Source: an uncultured Lachnospiraceae bacterium (lineage in GTDB: Bacteria > Bacillota > Clostridia > Lachnospirales > Lachnospiraceae). Taken from it: a stretch of 33,902 nucleotides of DNA. Made by a program: the position numbers and the translations under genes. This document shows positions 5,206 through 33,902 of the stretch, piece by piece. The stretch lies in assembly GCA_947631605.1 (NCBI GenBank), contig CANRMC010000012.1, positions 1-33,902 on the forward strand. The letters run 5' to 3'. Position 1 is the first letter of the stretch; each line of letters starts with the position of its first letter. Under the pieces are notes generated by a model. It saw nothing but the letters and a program-made list of their open reading frames with translations. It ran no database searches and was not told where the DNA came from.

Positions 5206-5468
5206 CCGTGCGGCCAGCTTTGTGAAGTTCTCCCAGACGTTACCTTGGCAGTTAACTCAACCCAGGCTGCCTTGCGGCGCCCGAAAGGTTCTACTTAGTG
5301 CTGCTTCGTTCCCGACCTGACACGGTTCATAGAGTTCCGTCGCGCAAGACCCGAATATCAACATCACTTACCAAGGGCAGCTCTAAAAAAATCAACCCGA
5401 GGCCGACCATCACCCCTGCTATAGCGGATTGCAGGTACAGGGCACCGCTAACTCCCCGGCTGCACGGA
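5206..5468 (-). ncRNA. ffs: Signal recognition particle RNA (large, Alu-containing type)
   Basis: Read on the minus strand, the conserved helix 8 is present: GTCAGGTCGGGAACGAAGCA carries the GGAA tetraloop, followed by GCACTAAG. The 5' and 3' ends pair (CCGTGC-GCCGG with CTGGCC-GCACGG), giving a roughly 263-nt molecule with a 5' Alu domain like the B. subtilis scRNA rather than the short E. coli 4.5S form. It binds Ffh and directs ribosomes to the membrane. The closing helix followed by TTATTTTTTT on the minus strand serves as terminator. It lies just downstream of tadA, the usual Firmicutes neighbour, but dnaX is not on its other side. End coordinates are approximate. Confidence 0.92.
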
Positions 5469-28714: not shown

Positions 28715-29722
28715 ATGAATAATTCAAGCATTATTATGTACACAACAGAAGATGGTTTAACCAAAATAGAAACAACTTTTGATGAAGATACTGTTTGGCT
28801 TTCATTAGACCAGATGGCTGAACTATTCCAGAGGGACAAATCAACAGTCTCCAGACACATAAAAAATATATTTACAGAGGGAGAATTAGAACCCTCGGCA
28901 ACTGTTGCAAAATTTGCAACAGTTCAAACCGAAGGAACGCGTACTGTGGAAAGAAACATTGATTACTATAACCTTGATGTCATTATTTCTGTCGGATACC
29001 GCGTAAAATCTCTCCGTGGTACACAGTTCCGAATATGGGCTATAGGAATTTTGAAAGAATACATGAAAAAGGGATTTGCCTTAGATGATGACAGGCTCAA
29101 AAGATTGGGCGGCGGCAATTACTTTGATGAATTGCTTGCCCGTATCAGAGACATCCGCTCCTCTGAGAAAGTATTTTGGCGAAAAGTACTTGAAATCTAT
29201 GCAACCAGCATTGACTATGATCCACATGCCGAAAGTTCAATACTATTCTTTAAGCAGATACAGAATAAAATGCACTGGGCTGCCCATAAACACACTGCTG
29301 CTGAAGTCATCTTTGAACGAGCAGACGCGGAAAAAGAAAATATGGGACTTACATCATGGGCACATGATGCAATCCATCGCTCCGATGTTGAAATTGCCAA
29401 AAATTATCTTACAGAGCTGGAACTTGATGCTCTCAATAAGATTGTTACCGCTTATCTTGATATTGCCGAAGTACATGCTCTCAACAAAGATCCTATGTAT
29501 ATGAAAGACTGGCTGGAAACCATTGATGATTATCTAAAAATGACCCGCCGTGATATTCTTACCAGCAGTGGACACATCAGCCATAAGCAGGCTATCGAAA
29601 AAGCTCATGCGGAATATGATAAATATAAGCATCGTCTAGAGGATACACTCTCTCCTGTTGAAAAAGATTTTATTGAAAGTATCAGTATGCTGGAACATAT
29701 TACCGACAGTTCAAAAAAATAA
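28715..29722 (+). CDS. RhuM family protein (virulence/defence-associated)
   Basis: A 335-residue protein of the RhuM family. It opens with a winged-helix-like part, WLSLDQMAELFQRDKSTVSRHIKNIFTEGEL (about 29-59), followed by RNIDYYNLDVIISVGYRVKSLRGTQFRIWA, the family core also seen in phage Bro/KilA-type and Fic-associated proteins. The C-terminal half is helical and contains FFKQIQNKMHWAAHKHTAAEVIFERADA and KNYLTELELDALNKIVTAYLDIAE. RhuM was named in a Salmonella pathogenicity island and is common in mobile and defence islands; its molecular activity is not established. Here it stands alone on the plus strand at the edge of a decayed region. Confidence 0.85.
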   Translation: MNNSSIIMYTTEDGLTKIETTFDEDTVWLSLDQMAELFQRDKSTVSRHIKNIFTEGELEPSATVAKFATVQTEGTRTVERNIDYYNLDVIISVGYRVKSLRGTQFRIWAIGILKEYMKKGFALDDDRLKRLGGGNYFDELLARIRDIRSSEKVFWRKVLEIYATSIDYDPHAESSILFFKQIQNKMHWAAHKHTAAEVIFERADAEKENMGLTSWAHDAIHRSDVEIAKNYLTELELDALNKIVTAYLDIAEVHALNKDPMYMKDWLETIDDYLKMTRRDILTSSGHISHKQAIEKAHAEYDKYKHRLEDTLSPVEKDFIESISMLEHITDSSKK

Positions 29723-29967: not shown

Positions 29968-30258
29968 TTTGCACTTTGGTGCATAAATTCTGTTTTTTTG
30001 ACAAATTATGCAATGATTGTGTGATAACCTATTTCCATGCATAACCAAAAGCGGATTGCAAAATTACATAATGCAATCCGCCACCATCCTAGGCAAAAAT
30101 ATATTAAATTCACCTAGGTTACTATTATATGCAAAAAAGACATTTCTAAGCAAAAAAAAAGAAAAGCTATGCAATTCTTTTTTTCTAAAGTAAGACGAAT
30201 AGCTATGCATTTCCTCCTACAGGTTCGTATTATATCATTATCCAGACTCTTGTCAAGA
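29968..30258. other. AT-rich non-coding stretch with palindromes and TATGCA motifs
   Basis: No gene is visible. It holds a perfect 10-bp hairpin (30051-30081), two CCTAGG palindromes flanking an AT-rich spacer (around 30088-30119), and two close direct repeats AGCTATGCA (30165 and 30201) among other ATGCA words. The stretch looks like decayed intergenic or mobile DNA. Confidence 0.4.
30051..30081 (-). terminator. Perfect 10-bp hairpin, probable terminator
   Basis: GCGGATTGCA (30051-30060) and TGCAATCCGC (30072-30081) with an 11-nt loop. On the minus strand it is followed by TTTT, and it lies downstream of the DUF3800 remnant, whose original transcript it may have ended. Confidence 0.5.
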
Positions 30259-30540
30259 CTATTCTATAATTTTAAATCCAAATCTATCTTTCATTCCAAT
30301 TTTGCCATCATACAACTTAGAGTTTATTCCGTCAAGTATCGAATATGGTTTCTGTTTTTTTGAAAGAGCTTGCCTTGCTAAAGAGTTTGGTATGAAATCA
30401 GCCAACTGCAAACCAATAATATTATCTGATTTAATTGCAAAATTAATTGTAGATAAACGCTCTTGCAATGCCTCTTTTTTTATAAATAGTGTTCTTTCAT
30501 CTTACCCCTCCTTATAAACCGATATCTGAACATTCTTAAT
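30259..30540 (-). pseudogene. C-terminal remnant of a DUF3800 gene
   Basis: The minus-strand frame ends in NIIGLQLADFIPNSLARQ, then KPYSILDGINSKLYDGKIGM and KDRFGFKIIE. This is the characteristic C-terminus of DUF3800 proteins (predicted RNase H-like nucleases frequent in phage and defence loci). Upstream, the same frame reads DERTLFIKKEALQERLSTIN but is closed by a TAA at 30504-30502, with IKNVQISVYKEG before that stop. The catalytic N-terminal half is absent. An internal TTG start could make about 70 residues, but no ribosome site is present, so I call it a fragment. Confidence 0.7.
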
Positions 30541-30556
30541 TGAATGGCAACATATG

Positions 30557-30769
30557 TCATCGACGGGTTTCATCCTTCTTACTGCTTTTTAGCAATTTCT
30601 CATATCTTATCTGATACTCTATCAACCGTGGAATATATTCCGGCGGAGTTCGTCTGCCCGCCTCCCAGTCCTCCAGAGTACGGACAGGTATCCCCGTATG
30701 AGCCGAAAATTCTTTCCTATTCTCACCTGTTTCCTCACGAAGTTCTGTTATCTTTTTCGCTATATCCAT
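30557..30769 (-). CDS. Small Xre-family helix-turn-helix protein
   Basis: A 70-residue protein consisting of little more than one helix-turn-helix: ITELREETGENRKEFSAHTG and IPVRTLEDWEAGRRTPPEYI. The TLEDWEAGxRxPPEYIxRLI form is common in small clostridial Xre regulators that sit beside toxin-like or phage-related genes. GGAGGAGGGCGG precedes the ATG. It lies 16 bp upstream of the DUF3800 remnant on the same strand, so it may have regulated that lost partner. It has its own good promoter at 30802-30830. Confidence 0.82.
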   Translation of the reverse strand: MDIAKKITELREETGENRKEFSAHTGIPVRTLEDWEAGRRTPPEYIPRLIEYQIRYEKLLKSSKKDETRR

Positions 30770-30801
30770 ATCCGCCCTCCTCCACGCATTGCGATATATG
30801 T

Positions 30802-30830
30802 ATCATATCACATACGCTCCTGTTTCGCAA
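30802..30830 (-). promoter_or_regulatory. Promoter and possible operator of the Xre gene
   Basis: On the minus strand TTGCGA (30830-30825), a 17-bp spacer and TATGAT (30807-30802). The -10 lies within the imperfect palindrome TATGT-GATATGAT-ACATA, a likely autoregulatory site. Confidence 0.6.
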
Positions 30831-30869
30831 CCTATGCCCCGCATTTCTTTCTGCTCTATTTCTATAAAA

Positions 30870-30962: not shown

Positions 30963-31283
30963 TTATAGAGAGCTATTATTTTGTGCCACGAGCTGCCTCT
31001 CTTTCATGATCGTATTATAAAATTCACTATCCGGGGTGATCTCATGAATTTCAAATACATCAACCTTTTTATTTAGCGCCACCCGTAATTCCTCTGCAAG
31101 TGCAAAAATGTTGGTGAGCTTGAAATTTTTTCCCCCATAAACCAAAAAATCTACATCACTATCTATACTGGCTTCGCCTCTGGCATAGGAACCGAATAAA
31201 TAAATCTGTTCTACATGATACTTTTCGGCAATCGGCTTAACCAAATTGATTATAGTTTTTATCGTAATTACTGTGTCTCTCAT
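30963..31283 (-). CDS. MNT-type nucleotidyltransferase domain protein
   Basis: The start MRDTVITIKTI (31283) has AAGGAG eight bases upstream; the longer frame to 31340 lacks a site. The 106-residue protein is a minimal pol-beta nucleotidyltransferase. It has LFGSYARGEASIDSDVDFLV (G31-S32, Asp43, Asp45) and a third acidic residue at about Asp75 (KKVDVFEI), so the catalytic triad is intact. Such MNT proteins usually act as antitoxins that AMPylate a HEPN toxin encoded next to them. No HEPN gene is seen on either side; downstream is a terminator. It may be an orphan. Confidence 0.85.
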   Translation of the reverse strand: MRDTVITIKTIINLVKPIAEKYHVEQIYLFGSYARGEASIDSDVDFLVYGGKNFKLTNIFALAEELRVALNKKVDVFEIHEITPDSEFYNTIMKERQLVAQNNSSL

Positions 31284-31653
31284 GTTATTGTCTCCTTTTG
31301 GTTCCGATTGCCGGGAAATCTTTAATGGACGGTGCGGCAAGAAAAGATGTGTTTGAATATCTGAAAATCATGAGGAAGAATCATAGTAATCCGGAGAAGA
31401 AAAGAGATTTGAGAATGCAGAGCTCCTATTTCAATCCATGCCTGACACCCATCTCATTGTAGTTTCAATAGTTATAAAACTTTTAAAGAGACTTCTTCCG
31501 GAATTAATTTCACCGTTTGCGCTAATAATGTCACATCTCTGACCGCTGGTCATTTCAGAATATTTATCCTTTTGCTGAATATAACAGTACTCGACCTGAA
31601 ATCGTTAGAACGACCATTATACTTATATATAATTACCAATATAATCTTTTTGT
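31284..31653. other. Non-coding or decayed stretch between drmB and the MNT gene
   Basis: No convincing gene. On the plus strand an open frame around 31309-31458 reads GKSLMDGAARKDVFEYLKIM, then RKNHSNPEKKRDLRM and a short tail before a stop; it has no ribosome site. On the minus strand 31435-31610 is open for about 57 codons (VEYCYIQQKDKYSEM, TSGQRCDIISANGE) without a start codon. Either may be a gene remnant. ATTTCAATCCATGC (from 31429) resembles the conserved end of type I-C CRISPR repeats but occurs once. Confidence 0.4.
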
Positions 31654-33501
31654 TTAAATATCTTTCCAAAATCCAATATCAGGATTCTCGTATGTTCCGA
31701 TAATCACGCCACGATCCAAAAAGGCATTTCTTTCTTCACAACAGGTTTCTGGTAATAATCCACACGCATGACACGCTGCCAGATTCAGAGAGTCACGACC
31801 TTGCCCACGACTCATAATGCAAACGGGATCGTTAGAGCATGTCTTTGCACTCGCAATAGCTTTTTTAATTATGCGCGGAAAGGCATCGGCACGACCTTGT
31901 CTAACCAAGCCTCCAAGGGTTCCCTCCGAATCACCACTCGCCGTATAAATAAAAATACCGGCCATTTCTTTGCCATCTGCCTCCTCCGAACAATACAAAC
32001 GCTCTGAAAGTGAAGCAATGCTATATCCACACTCGAAACTCAGCTGAGTAATTAGCAAATGAGACAGAGTGTGGAGCATTAGAAACTTTGGCGTAATGGT
32101 TCGCGGATGGTTCTTACCAATAAATGACGATGAATAATTGGCATTTATTAACCCGACTCGTTCCGATACCTGTGGATTGTTGCGAATCCATGCAGTAATC
32201 TCAGAATTCTTGAATTCGATAAAAATTCCTTCACCGCGAACCTCGTATGCCGGATACCAGTTTGTTTCAGGTGATTTAACATTCACAAAACCATTATCGG
32301 TGGCATTCATTACAGGCTGTATCCTAGAAAAGCCAATAAGAGCGTTCACAATGCGCACTTTATCTATGAGCGAGATTGCTTTGATGTGTGGAAGGTTATA
32401 CCCCGCAATATCCATCTCCTCCCGTGAGAAATCTCCAAGCATAGAATCGGTCCGTGCGCCGATTTCTCCGGAGAGAGCAGCATATTCCTCCACGCGATAT
32501 TGAAGACTGGTAACATCGCTCTCTGAAATATTCGGTTCAAGCCATTTTCGTTTGAGAATTTTTTCAACATCGTCCCTAGCAGATCCTATTTCTAAAGCAA
32601 TCTTTTCCGACCACTTCGGAAGTCGCTTTTGGATAATAATCGGACAGTCCTCCGGCTCCTCATCAGCGATAACCGTTATGCAATCATTAAAAGCGTGACT
32701 TTGTTCAATCCTTGAATTCAGCTTATCCGCATACGGCGGAATAACCAGCGAACTGTGTACAACCGGGAAATATACCGAGGAAGCACCGCGCTGAACCGTC
32801 TTGGGATAACATGCACATGTTTCCTTTGTATGACGGAAAGGATGGTTTCCGTCGCAAAGAAAATTAAATCCCTCCGTTTTACGATCTAACTCTTCAAAAC
32901 AGTCCTTGTCAAAGGCACCTTTTAGAGTAGCGCATGCACCGCAAGAGCAACGAATGCTTAATCCTTCCAATCCTTCTGTACCTGAGGCACCGGTTTTAAA
33001 CTGTAACTCTGGGTGGGCGCATATGGGTTTCTTTGATTTTGCGTGAACCCATTTGACCCATGGGAAATCGTTAAGGTGTCCTTTCTGGCAAACCGTAACA
33101 ATACGCGCTACAACCAGATCCTGTTTGCATTCGGGGCACTGCATATGACTAATCATATACGAATCTTTTTCAACAATTTTCTTATTGAGGGATTTGCGAT
33201 AGTCTGCGATCCATTTTTTGAGAGGTTGAAATTTTCTGCATTTGGGACAAAAATACCATTCAGGAAAACGAGCATAGGAAATGTTCATGGGCGATGCAAA
33301 ATATTTTACACCAAGGGCTTTGGCGAAACGATCATCAAAAATTTTAGATGTTTCGCTCCAATATTCCGGAGCAGCAGTAACTAATGTCTGATCCGGGAAA
33401 TCAACCATAGCACCTACGCCGTATTGCAACACTGCCTGTGCTGCTCGAACGGAATGAGTTACTTTATTCAATTCGATTTTTGTTTTAAGTTGTTCAGACA
33501 T
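31654..33501 (-). CDS. drmB: DrmB-like DUF1998 protein (DISARM system)
   Basis: A 615-residue protein with the ordered features of DrmB. The N-terminus has VLQYGVGAMVDFPDQTLVTA. A four-Cys zinc site is formed by CPKC (85-88) and CPEC (122-125), followed by VCQKGHLNDFPWVKWVH (137-153) and RCSCGACATLKGAF (184-197). The C-terminal DUF1998 region has HTLSHLLITQLSFECGYSIASLSERLY and a final Cys cluster (CSNDPVC, CHACG, CC). In DISARM, DrmB acts with the helicase DrmA to block incoming DNA. I prefer the ATG at 33501, which has GGGGGG six bases upstream; it overlaps the drmA end by 8 bp. No drmC follows downstream. Confidence 0.87.
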   Translation of the reverse strand: MSEQLKTKIELNKVTHSVRAAQAVLQYGVGAMVDFPDQTLVTAAPEYWSETSKIFDDRFAKALGVKYFASPMNISYARFPEWYFCPKCRKFQPLKKWIADYRKSLNKKIVEKDSYMISHMQCPECKQDLVVARIVTVCQKGHLNDFPWVKWVHAKSKKPICAHPELQFKTGASGTEGLEGLSIRCSCGACATLKGAFDKDCFEELDRKTEGFNFLCDGNHPFRHTKETCACYPKTVQRGASSVYFPVVHSSLVIPPYADKLNSRIEQSHAFNDCITVIADEEPEDCPIIIQKRLPKWSEKIALEIGSARDDVEKILKRKWLEPNISESDVTSLQYRVEEYAALSGEIGARTDSMLGDFSREEMDIAGYNLPHIKAISLIDKVRIVNALIGFSRIQPVMNATDNGFVNVKSPETNWYPAYEVRGEGIFIEFKNSEITAWIRNNPQVSERVGLINANYSSSFIGKNHPRTITPKFLMLHTLSHLLITQLSFECGYSIASLSERLYCSEEADGKEMAGIFIYTASGDSEGTLGGLVRQGRADAFPRIIKKAIASAKTCSNDPVCIMSRGQGRDSLNLAACHACGLLPETCCEERNAFLDRGVIIGTYENPDIGFWKDI

Positions 33502-33902
33502 TATCATCCCCCCAAATCACTATTTTCCCCTGAACCGAAACATCCACATTGCGCATGGATGTCACGGTGTCCAAGGCAACATCTTTTCCCTGAGAGTTGT
33601 ACTGACGAAATAACCGTCTTCCCCCATCAACTGGCGGGTTCACCATATAACGACGACCAAAGCAGAATGTTCTGGCGTTGCCTTCTTTGTTGCATTCATC
33701 AACATATTTTTGCCATGTATCAAAGAACTCTCCTATCTCAGAGCGGATATCGTCCACCTGATCCGATACTTCACCACCAGAGCGGGCATTGATTCCAGCC
33801 ACACGTTCCGCAATAAATTCTTCTATTTCGGTAATAATATCGGCAAAATACTCTTTGTCAAAGTTAATGGCATCTTTATCCTCTCTTAAGCCCGCCTTAT
33901 GA
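33494..33902 (-). CDS. drmA: DrmA-like helicase, C-terminal end only (cut by window edge)
   Basis: The minus-strand frame is open from the right edge to a TGA at 33494-33496, giving the last 135 or so residues. Visible are a helical stretch (FADIITEIEEFIAERVAGIN, IGEFFDTWQKYVDECNKE) and the terminal motif VTSMRNVDVSVQGKIVIW. A final SMRNVD-type strand is what I recall at the C-terminus of DISARM DrmA helicases. The 8-bp overlap with drmB matches the conserved drmA-drmB order. Helicase motifs lie outside the window, so the call rests on the C-terminal motif and the neighbour. Confidence 0.72.
   Translation of the reverse strand, partial: HKAGLREDKDAINFDKEYFADIITEIEEFIAERVAGINARSGGEVSDQVDDIRSEIGEFFDTWQKYVDECNKEGNARTFCFGRRYMVNPPVDGGRRLFRQYNSQGKDVALDTVTSMRNVDVSVQGKIVIWGDDNV

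What the first reader, a model, noticed from the sequence alone, without database searches (positions are those of the whole stretch)
31654..33902. DISARM-like drmA-drmB pair without drmC beside it
drmB has all zinc motifs and the DUF1998 end and overlaps the drmA tail, as in DISARM. Canonical loci usually have drmC after drmB; here only non-coding DNA and an MNT gene follow. The system is therefore a reduced or variant DISARM, or its methyltransferase and other parts lie to the right, outside the window.
Basis: partly seen in the sequence, partly recalled or inferred. Interest (0 to 1): 0.55.

Follow-up and report, generated by a model that had tools for sequence, protein, structure and literature searches.

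The report
drmC-less DISARM with Vsr-methyltransferase fusion (relatives)
The end of this DNA piece carries the last part of a bacterial anti-phage system (DISARM) of a branch that regularly lacks the usual accessory nuclease gene, and whose close relatives carry a DNA methyltransferase fused to a repair-type nuclease; it is a real variant of a known system rather than a new kind.

Summary
drmB (31654-33507, minus) is full-length and conserved (DrmB_fam 438 bits; dN/dS 0.12). It overlaps a 135-codon drmA tail cut by the contig end; the window is the whole contig. No PLD (DrmC) gene follows. The rest of drmA, drmE and the methyltransferase are not in this assembly, so the reading rests on relatives. 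The nearest (91% DrmB) reads Vsr/C5-methyltransferase fusion - DrmE-family - DrmA - DrmB. In the clade holding the window, 18 of 21 relatives with upstream sequence have the in-frame fusion and 0 of 21 with 2 kb downstream have a PLD motif. In the sister clade 15 of 15 have a NERD/UvrD-type helicase after DrmB. Best reading: a class-2-like DISARM lineage without drmC, not a broken copy. Missing drmC is already in print. Less expected are the fusion (one other among 97 hit genomes) and a predicted DrmE fold like an SF2 helicase without the Walker-A lysine. Defence was not tested. New variant of a known kind; moderate interest.

The parts
31654..33507 (-). drmB, 617 aa, full length, MZB/DUF1998 C-terminus
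33494..33902 (-). 3' end of drmA (135 codons), cut by the contig end; overlaps drmB by 14 nt
31341..31653 (.). stretch after drmB where drmC would stand; no PLD motif in any frame
31323..31420 (+). remnant of the 3' end of an HTH (Cro/C1-type) regulator gene, whole in L004 (11981-12538, -)

Best explanation
The pair is the 3' end of a DISARM-type operon of a drmC-less, class-2-like lineage: (HTH) - Vsr/C5-cytosine methyltransferase fusion - DrmE-family protein - DrmA - DrmB. Proposed working: the methyltransferase marks self DNA with 5-methylcytosine; the Vsr domain repairs the T:G mismatches that deaminated 5-methylcytosine leaves at the marked sites; DrmA (SF2 helicase) with DrmB loads on unmarked, open-ended phage DNA and translocates, blocking replication and transcription; DrmE, a helicase-like but motif-less protein with an HTH, is a DNA-binding accessory. 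Degradation of the phage DNA, if any, uses host nucleases. Shown: gene content and order in relatives, integrity of and selection on drmB, absence of a PLD gene, purifying selection on the Vsr domain. Inferred: that the window's genome holds the upstream genes, all biochemical roles, and defence itself.
For: DrmB and DrmA family matches. Nearest relative L004, 91% DrmB, carries the whole operon and shares 89% DNA with the window over 31650-33902 plus two flank stretches. Tree: window in a clade of 24 rows, support 100, sister of L004. In that clade Vsr and methyltransferase are fused in frame in 18 of 21 relatives with upstream sequence. PLD motif downstream in 0 of 21 with 2 kb (the DrmC of L062 is found as positive control); DrmC_I over cut-off in 0 of 50 genomes. 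dN/dS of drmB 0.12, of the Vsr domain 0.06-0.075 in three close pairs. Methyltransferase motifs such as GFPCQ kept in 16 of 16 aligned fusions. That DrmC is dispensable and often missing, and that DrmAB is activated by unmethylated open ends, is reported in PMC9142583 (passages).
Against: No upstream part of the system is in this genome's assembly; a 4-kb contig with the tail of L004's left-flank gene leads into other genes. DrmA of L004 scores 922 bits against a curated cut-off of 950, and its DrmE falls far below the DISARM_DrmE equivalog cut-off (46 against 250), though over the DrmE_fam one (767 against 80). The Vsr domain reads CDGDFWH where E. coli Vsr has THGCFWH, so mismatch repair is not assured. 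No experiment.
Confidence: 0.72

Rival explanations
1. The Vsr domain fused to the methyltransferase is the effector nuclease that replaces DrmC: it cuts DNA on which DrmAB has been activated.
For: No other nuclease family was found in the four-gene operon of L004; Vsr-type nucleases go with helicases in ARMADA (PMC12458937 section 8) and CoCoNuT III-B (PMC11090510 passages); strong purifying selection; fusion rare elsewhere.
Against: Vsr tracks the methyltransferase, not the lack of drmC: it sits beside a C5 methyltransferase also in a drmC-bearing class 1 locus (L062) and in the sister clade that has a NERD helicase. L026 has no Vsr; L024's Vsr domain is degenerate and L010 has the Asp of GKPD changed to Asn, yet drmE/A/B remain.
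Confidence: 0.2
2. The drmAB pair in this genome is a stranded remnant: the upstream operon has been lost and the contig end hides a truncated drmA.
For: No drmE, methyltransferase fusion or drmA N-terminus anywhere in a 97%-complete assembly; a decayed gene lies next to drmB.
Against: drmB is intact with dN/dS 0.12 and the drmA tail is open and conserved, 0.21; the match to L004 runs to the very last base of the contig.
Confidence: 0.12
3. A non-defence DUF1998 helicase pair (MrfA-like repair).
For: MZB domain shared with MrfA.
Against: Split drmA/drmB genes, DrmB-specific models and neighbours; patchy presence: 13 of 299 family genomes have any DrmB match, one besides its own at 73% identity, the rest 60% or less.
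Confidence: 0.03

Closest known systems
Class 2 DISARM (DrmMII, DrmE, DrmA, DrmB, DrmC)
   Same: In relatives: C5 methyltransferase, DrmE-type protein, DrmA and DrmB in one operon, drmA and drmB overlapping
   Different: No DrmC; DrmE of the separate DrmE_fam model; methyltransferase fused to Vsr
Sister lineage with DrmB of about 785 aa and a NERD/UvrD-type helicase after it
   Same: DrmE-DrmA-DrmB core, C5 methyltransferase, Vsr often nearby
   Different: NERD helicase in the drmC position in 15 of 15, Vsr not fused, DrmB about 170 aa longer
Lactiplantibacillus plantarum plasmid pMK02 locus (L063)
   Same: C5 methyltransferase - 801-aa protein - helicase - DUF1998, no annotated DrmC after it
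   Different: No Vsr annotated; DrmB only 32% identical
ARMADA / TALON / CoCoNuT III-B (PMC12458937, PMC11090510)
   Same: Helicases working with Vsr- or NERD-type nucleases
   Different: There the nuclease is fused to or encoded with the helicase; here Vsr is fused to the methyltransferase

Membership tests
DISARM (core) | DrmB with MZB/DUF1998 | tested here: met
DISARM (core) | DrmA SF2 helicase | tested here: inconclusive
   only the last 135 codons are in the window; whole DrmA in L004 matches PADLOC DrmA 4.5e-210 and scores 922 bits against the NF038325 cut-off of 950
DISARM (core) | DrmC PLD nuclease after DrmB | tested here: not met
   (window, and 21 relatives with 2 kb downstream)
Class 2 DISARM as PADLOC defines it (DrmA, B, C, E, MII; PMC9252829 passages) | DrmE | tested here: inconclusive
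   absent from the assembly; in L004 NF038316 767 bits (over cut-off), NF038323 46 bits (below cut-off)
Class 2 DISARM as PADLOC defines it (DrmA, B, C, E, MII; PMC9252829 passages) | DrmMII C5 methyltransferase | tested here: inconclusive
   absent from the assembly; in L004 PADLOC DrmMII 2.2e-48 and Pfam DNA_methylase 3.9e-60
Class 2 DISARM as PADLOC defines it (DrmA, B, C, E, MII; PMC9252829 passages) | DrmC | tested here: not met
Class 1 DISARM | DrmD (SNF2-like) and DrmMI | tested here: inconclusive
   upstream not in the window; no DrmD or DrmMI among the families shown for five proteins of L004
DISARM | phage defence | not testable with these tools
   needs an experiment

The most novel reading that the evidence does not exclude
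The DrmE-family branch is a distinct class of DISARM that works without DrmC throughout: a catalytically dead, SF2-helicase-like, HTH-bearing DrmE serves as the DNA reader next to the active helicase DrmA, the effector position after DrmB is exchangeable (empty here, a NERD helicase-nuclease in the sister clade), and a Vsr-methyltransferase fusion couples marking with upkeep of the mark, or supplies the cutting.
Probability: 0.35. Interest if true: 0.6.

Novelty: new variant of a known kind. Interest (0 to 1): 0.4.

Why it matters
How DISARM stops phage without DrmC is an open point stated in print (PMC9142583 passages). A lineage that regularly lacks drmC, beside a sister lineage that regularly has a NERD helicase in its place, gives natural pairs on which to test whether DISARM needs a nuclease at all, and what DrmE does. 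Definitions that demand DrmC for a type II call (PMC9252829 passages) would pass over it as a whole system.

Tried and rejected
Looked for the missing right-hand part in the own assembly with DrmA, the Vsr-MTase and L004's left flank: only the drmA tail itself, an unrelated Vsr at the edge of contig C110 and a flank-gene tail on contig C147 followed by other genes. Phage records and viral contigs: no relative of DrmB. DrmE as a hidden nuclease: the whole model resembles SF2 helicases over residues 1-581 (Foldseek E 4e-7 to 5e-5 but TM to the query only 0.13-0.25; VIA Z 12.0-13.3); the C-terminal part alone gave no PDB match at E <= 0.001, and HTH rows at Z 5.7-7.7 beside intein-like rows of similar Z, all within the range that the tool calls common; no nuclease family other than intein homing endonucleases was listed, which excludes nothing. 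NF038320, guessed as a second DrmC model, does not exist, so only DrmC_I was tested by model; the sub-cut-off matches in 36 of 50 genomes are mostly in open frames of about 500 aa, which I take (recalled, not tested) for cardiolipin synthases. McrB-like genes near L013 and, by cluster, L026, L041, L047 fit a McrBC-DISARM link noted in PMC11090510 (passages); not pursued.

Corrections to my own steps: the greedy ORF caller dropped genes whose longest start overlaps a neighbour, so the gene lists under-count (e.g. the L005/L006 fusions and the L028/L031/L045 NERD genes); the counts in this report come from the tblastn recount and the six-frame scan. Rows dropped: 4 of 54 relatives (L043, L051, L052, L053; partial DrmB) were left out of the tree; in the window's clade L008 and L023 lack upstream sequence; L018 (384 bp downstream) and L023 were not counted downstream; the genome search left out L023, L051, L052, L053 and could not search L024 (not held). 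The tree is a quick one with long reference branches whose placing is unsure.

Full report
Observation. The window is the whole contig C12 (33,902 bases) of a 2.34-Mb assembly in 189 contigs, 97% complete. At its right end, on the minus strand, lies drmB (31654-33507, 617 aa) and, overlapping it by 14 nt, the last 135 codons of drmA, cut by the contig end. DrmB is recognised by PADLOC (4e-81), Pfam MZB, NCBIfam DrmB_fam (438 bits, cut-off 240) and the solved Serratia DrmB. Its zinc-ligand positions are conserved across 59 rows, and drmB evolves under purifying selection against the nearest relative (dN/dS 0.12; drmA tail 0.21). No PLD motif lies in six frames within 3 kb beyond drmB; the same pattern finds the annotated DrmC of L062.

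Missing parts. The rest of drmA, and the methyltransferase fusion, were not found elsewhere in the assembly; the only match of the fusion query is a Vsr piece at a contig edge. DrmE was not found either: the phylum survey with NF038316, which included G000, has no match there. So the window alone shows only drmB and a piece of drmA.

Relatives. A scan of genome contigs gave 54 loci. The nearest, L004 (91% DrmB), reads HTH - Vsr/C5-methyltransferase fusion (516 aa) - DrmE-family (871 aa) - DrmA (1234 aa) - DrmB (617 aa), with no DrmC. Window and L004 share 89% DNA over 31650-33902 and two flank stretches (31323-31484, 79%; 30588-30861, 89%). A quick tree of 59 DrmB rows (window, 50 of 54 relatives, 8 plasmid references) puts the window in a clade of 24 rows (SH-aLRT 100), which spans Lachnospiraceae, Oscillospiraceae, Peptococcaceae, Paenibacillaceae and one Neisseriaceae, as expected of a mobile system. 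In 299 genomes of the window's family 13 have any DrmB match, and only one besides its own is close (73%).

Architecture counts. Of the 23 relatives in the clade, 21 have upstream sequence: 18 have Vsr and methyltransferase fused in frame, 1 (L013) has them as neighbours, 1 (L026) has a methyltransferase without Vsr, 1 (L021) has a Vsr and a methyltransferase remnant. Of 22 examined downstream, 21 have at least 2 kb: 0 of 21 have a PLD motif on the operon strand. In the sister clade 15 of 15 have a NERD/UvrD-type helicase directly after DrmB, and 0 of 23 in the window's clade have it (L023 ends inside DrmB and L018 has 384 bp); the domain names come from three of these helicases (L030, L050, L057). 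DrmC_I (NF038319) is over its cut-off in 0 of 50 genomes, against 1 of 14 controls. An independent start from DrmE_fam found it over cut-off in 5 of 398 phylum genomes. A DrmC query found nothing in any of those five loci by tblastn; NERD-helicase matches lie in 4 of 5; drmA and drmB in 4 of 5, the fifth contig ending first. In 398 phylum genomes the fusion query hit 97, and the match table shows one stop-free match spanning both domains (G367, open frame 548 aa), which has no DISARM genes in 16 kb. So the fusion is unusual outside this lineage but not unique to it.

The fusion. Pfam and NCBIfam see Vsr (TIGR00632 118 bits, cut-off 98) and a C5 methyltransferase. In 16 aligned fusions (16 of the 18) the methyltransferase motifs are kept. 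In the Vsr part the Asp matching the GRPD Asp of E. coli Vsr is kept in 15 of 16 (Asn in L010), and L024's Vsr is degenerate. Aligned to 1cw0, E. coli's THGCFWH reads CDGDFWH; which residues of Vsr are catalytic is recalled, not from a call. Vsr dN/dS is 0.06-0.075 in three close pairs, like the methyltransferase (0.06-0.09). The evidence leans to upkeep of the methyl mark rather than to a DrmC substitute, because Vsr goes with the methyltransferase also where DrmC is present (L062) and can be missing or broken with drmE/A/B kept.

DrmE. NCBIfam places it in DrmE_fam (767 bits) and far below the DISARM_DrmE equivalog cut-off. AlphaFold2 on 38 sequences gave pLDDT 82. Residues 1-581 resemble SF2 helicases (VIA Z 12.0-13.3, e.g. 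Mfd 285 residues at 4.4 A; Foldseek E down to 4e-7 but TM to the query 0.13-0.25). At the place of the P-loop the family mostly reads HTGSxCFD, and 0 of 38 have GK[ST] there; no DExD/H was seen at the stretch I took for motif II (the placing of the motifs is my inference). The C-terminal part, folded alone (pLDDT 81), has rows of Cro/C1-type HTH proteins (Z up to 7.7, 66 residues, 3.0 A), within the range that may be a common arrangement. I read DrmE as a helicase-like, probably inactive DNA-binding partner; this is a prediction.

What is in print. DrmC is reported as dispensable and often missing, and DrmAB as activated by unmethylated 5'-overhang DNA (PMC9142583, passages). DISARM is said to typically include a PLD nuclease after the DUF1998 gene, and Vsr nucleases occur in ARMADA and Druantia (PMC12458937: abstract, passages, sections 3, 5 and 8). 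Searches of the held library for DISARM with Vsr or 'very short patch repair' and for DrmE listed no paper that, from the listings and the passages I read, describes the fusion or a DrmE fold; not all listed papers were opened, and Ofir et al. 2018 is not held. So the lack of drmC is not new; the fusion-bearing lineage and the DrmE prediction I did not find.

Verdict. A real, probably functional end of a drmC-less, class-2-like DISARM variant, most of which is unseen in this assembly.

Noticed in passing
L027-L036, L038, L040, L044, L045, L055: Sister clade: DrmB of about 785 aa with an unassigned C-terminal extension of roughly 150-170 aa, followed by a NERD/UvrD-type helicase in 15 of 15; also after DrmB in L050 and L057 and, between drmE and drmA, in L090-L092.
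   Followed up: partly
28715-29722 (+): RhuM-family protein (Pfam Virulence_RhuM 2.2e-111; PADLOC candidate PDC-S05) near the DISARM end.
   Followed up: no
30963-31340 (-): MNT-type nucleotidyltransferase ORF next to drmB; in L004 this place holds other ORFs, so the stretch behind drmB turns over.
   Followed up: partly
30229-30256 and about 30062-30209 (-): Perfect sigma-70-like promoter match (12 of 12) followed by an AGGAGG-type site and a short ORF of under 50 codons; could be chance, since the scan found no more promoter-like sites than shuffles do.
   Followed up: no
30259-30468 (-): 69-aa ORF that looks like the tail of a DUF3800-type protein (label recalled, not tested).
   Followed up: no
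5206-5467 (-): Large bacterial SRP RNA (Rfam RF01854, 183.6 bits).
   Followed up: no
L021:2997-3516: Oscillibacter valericigenes Sjm18-20: Vsr followed by only a 32-residue methyltransferase match before drmE: a DISARM locus that seems to lack its own methyltransferase in a complete genome.
   Followed up: no
L062:11824-14364: Deinococcus sp. AJ005 plasmid: class 1 DISARM with DrmC has a Vsr gene and a C5 methyltransferase right beside it.
   Followed up: partly
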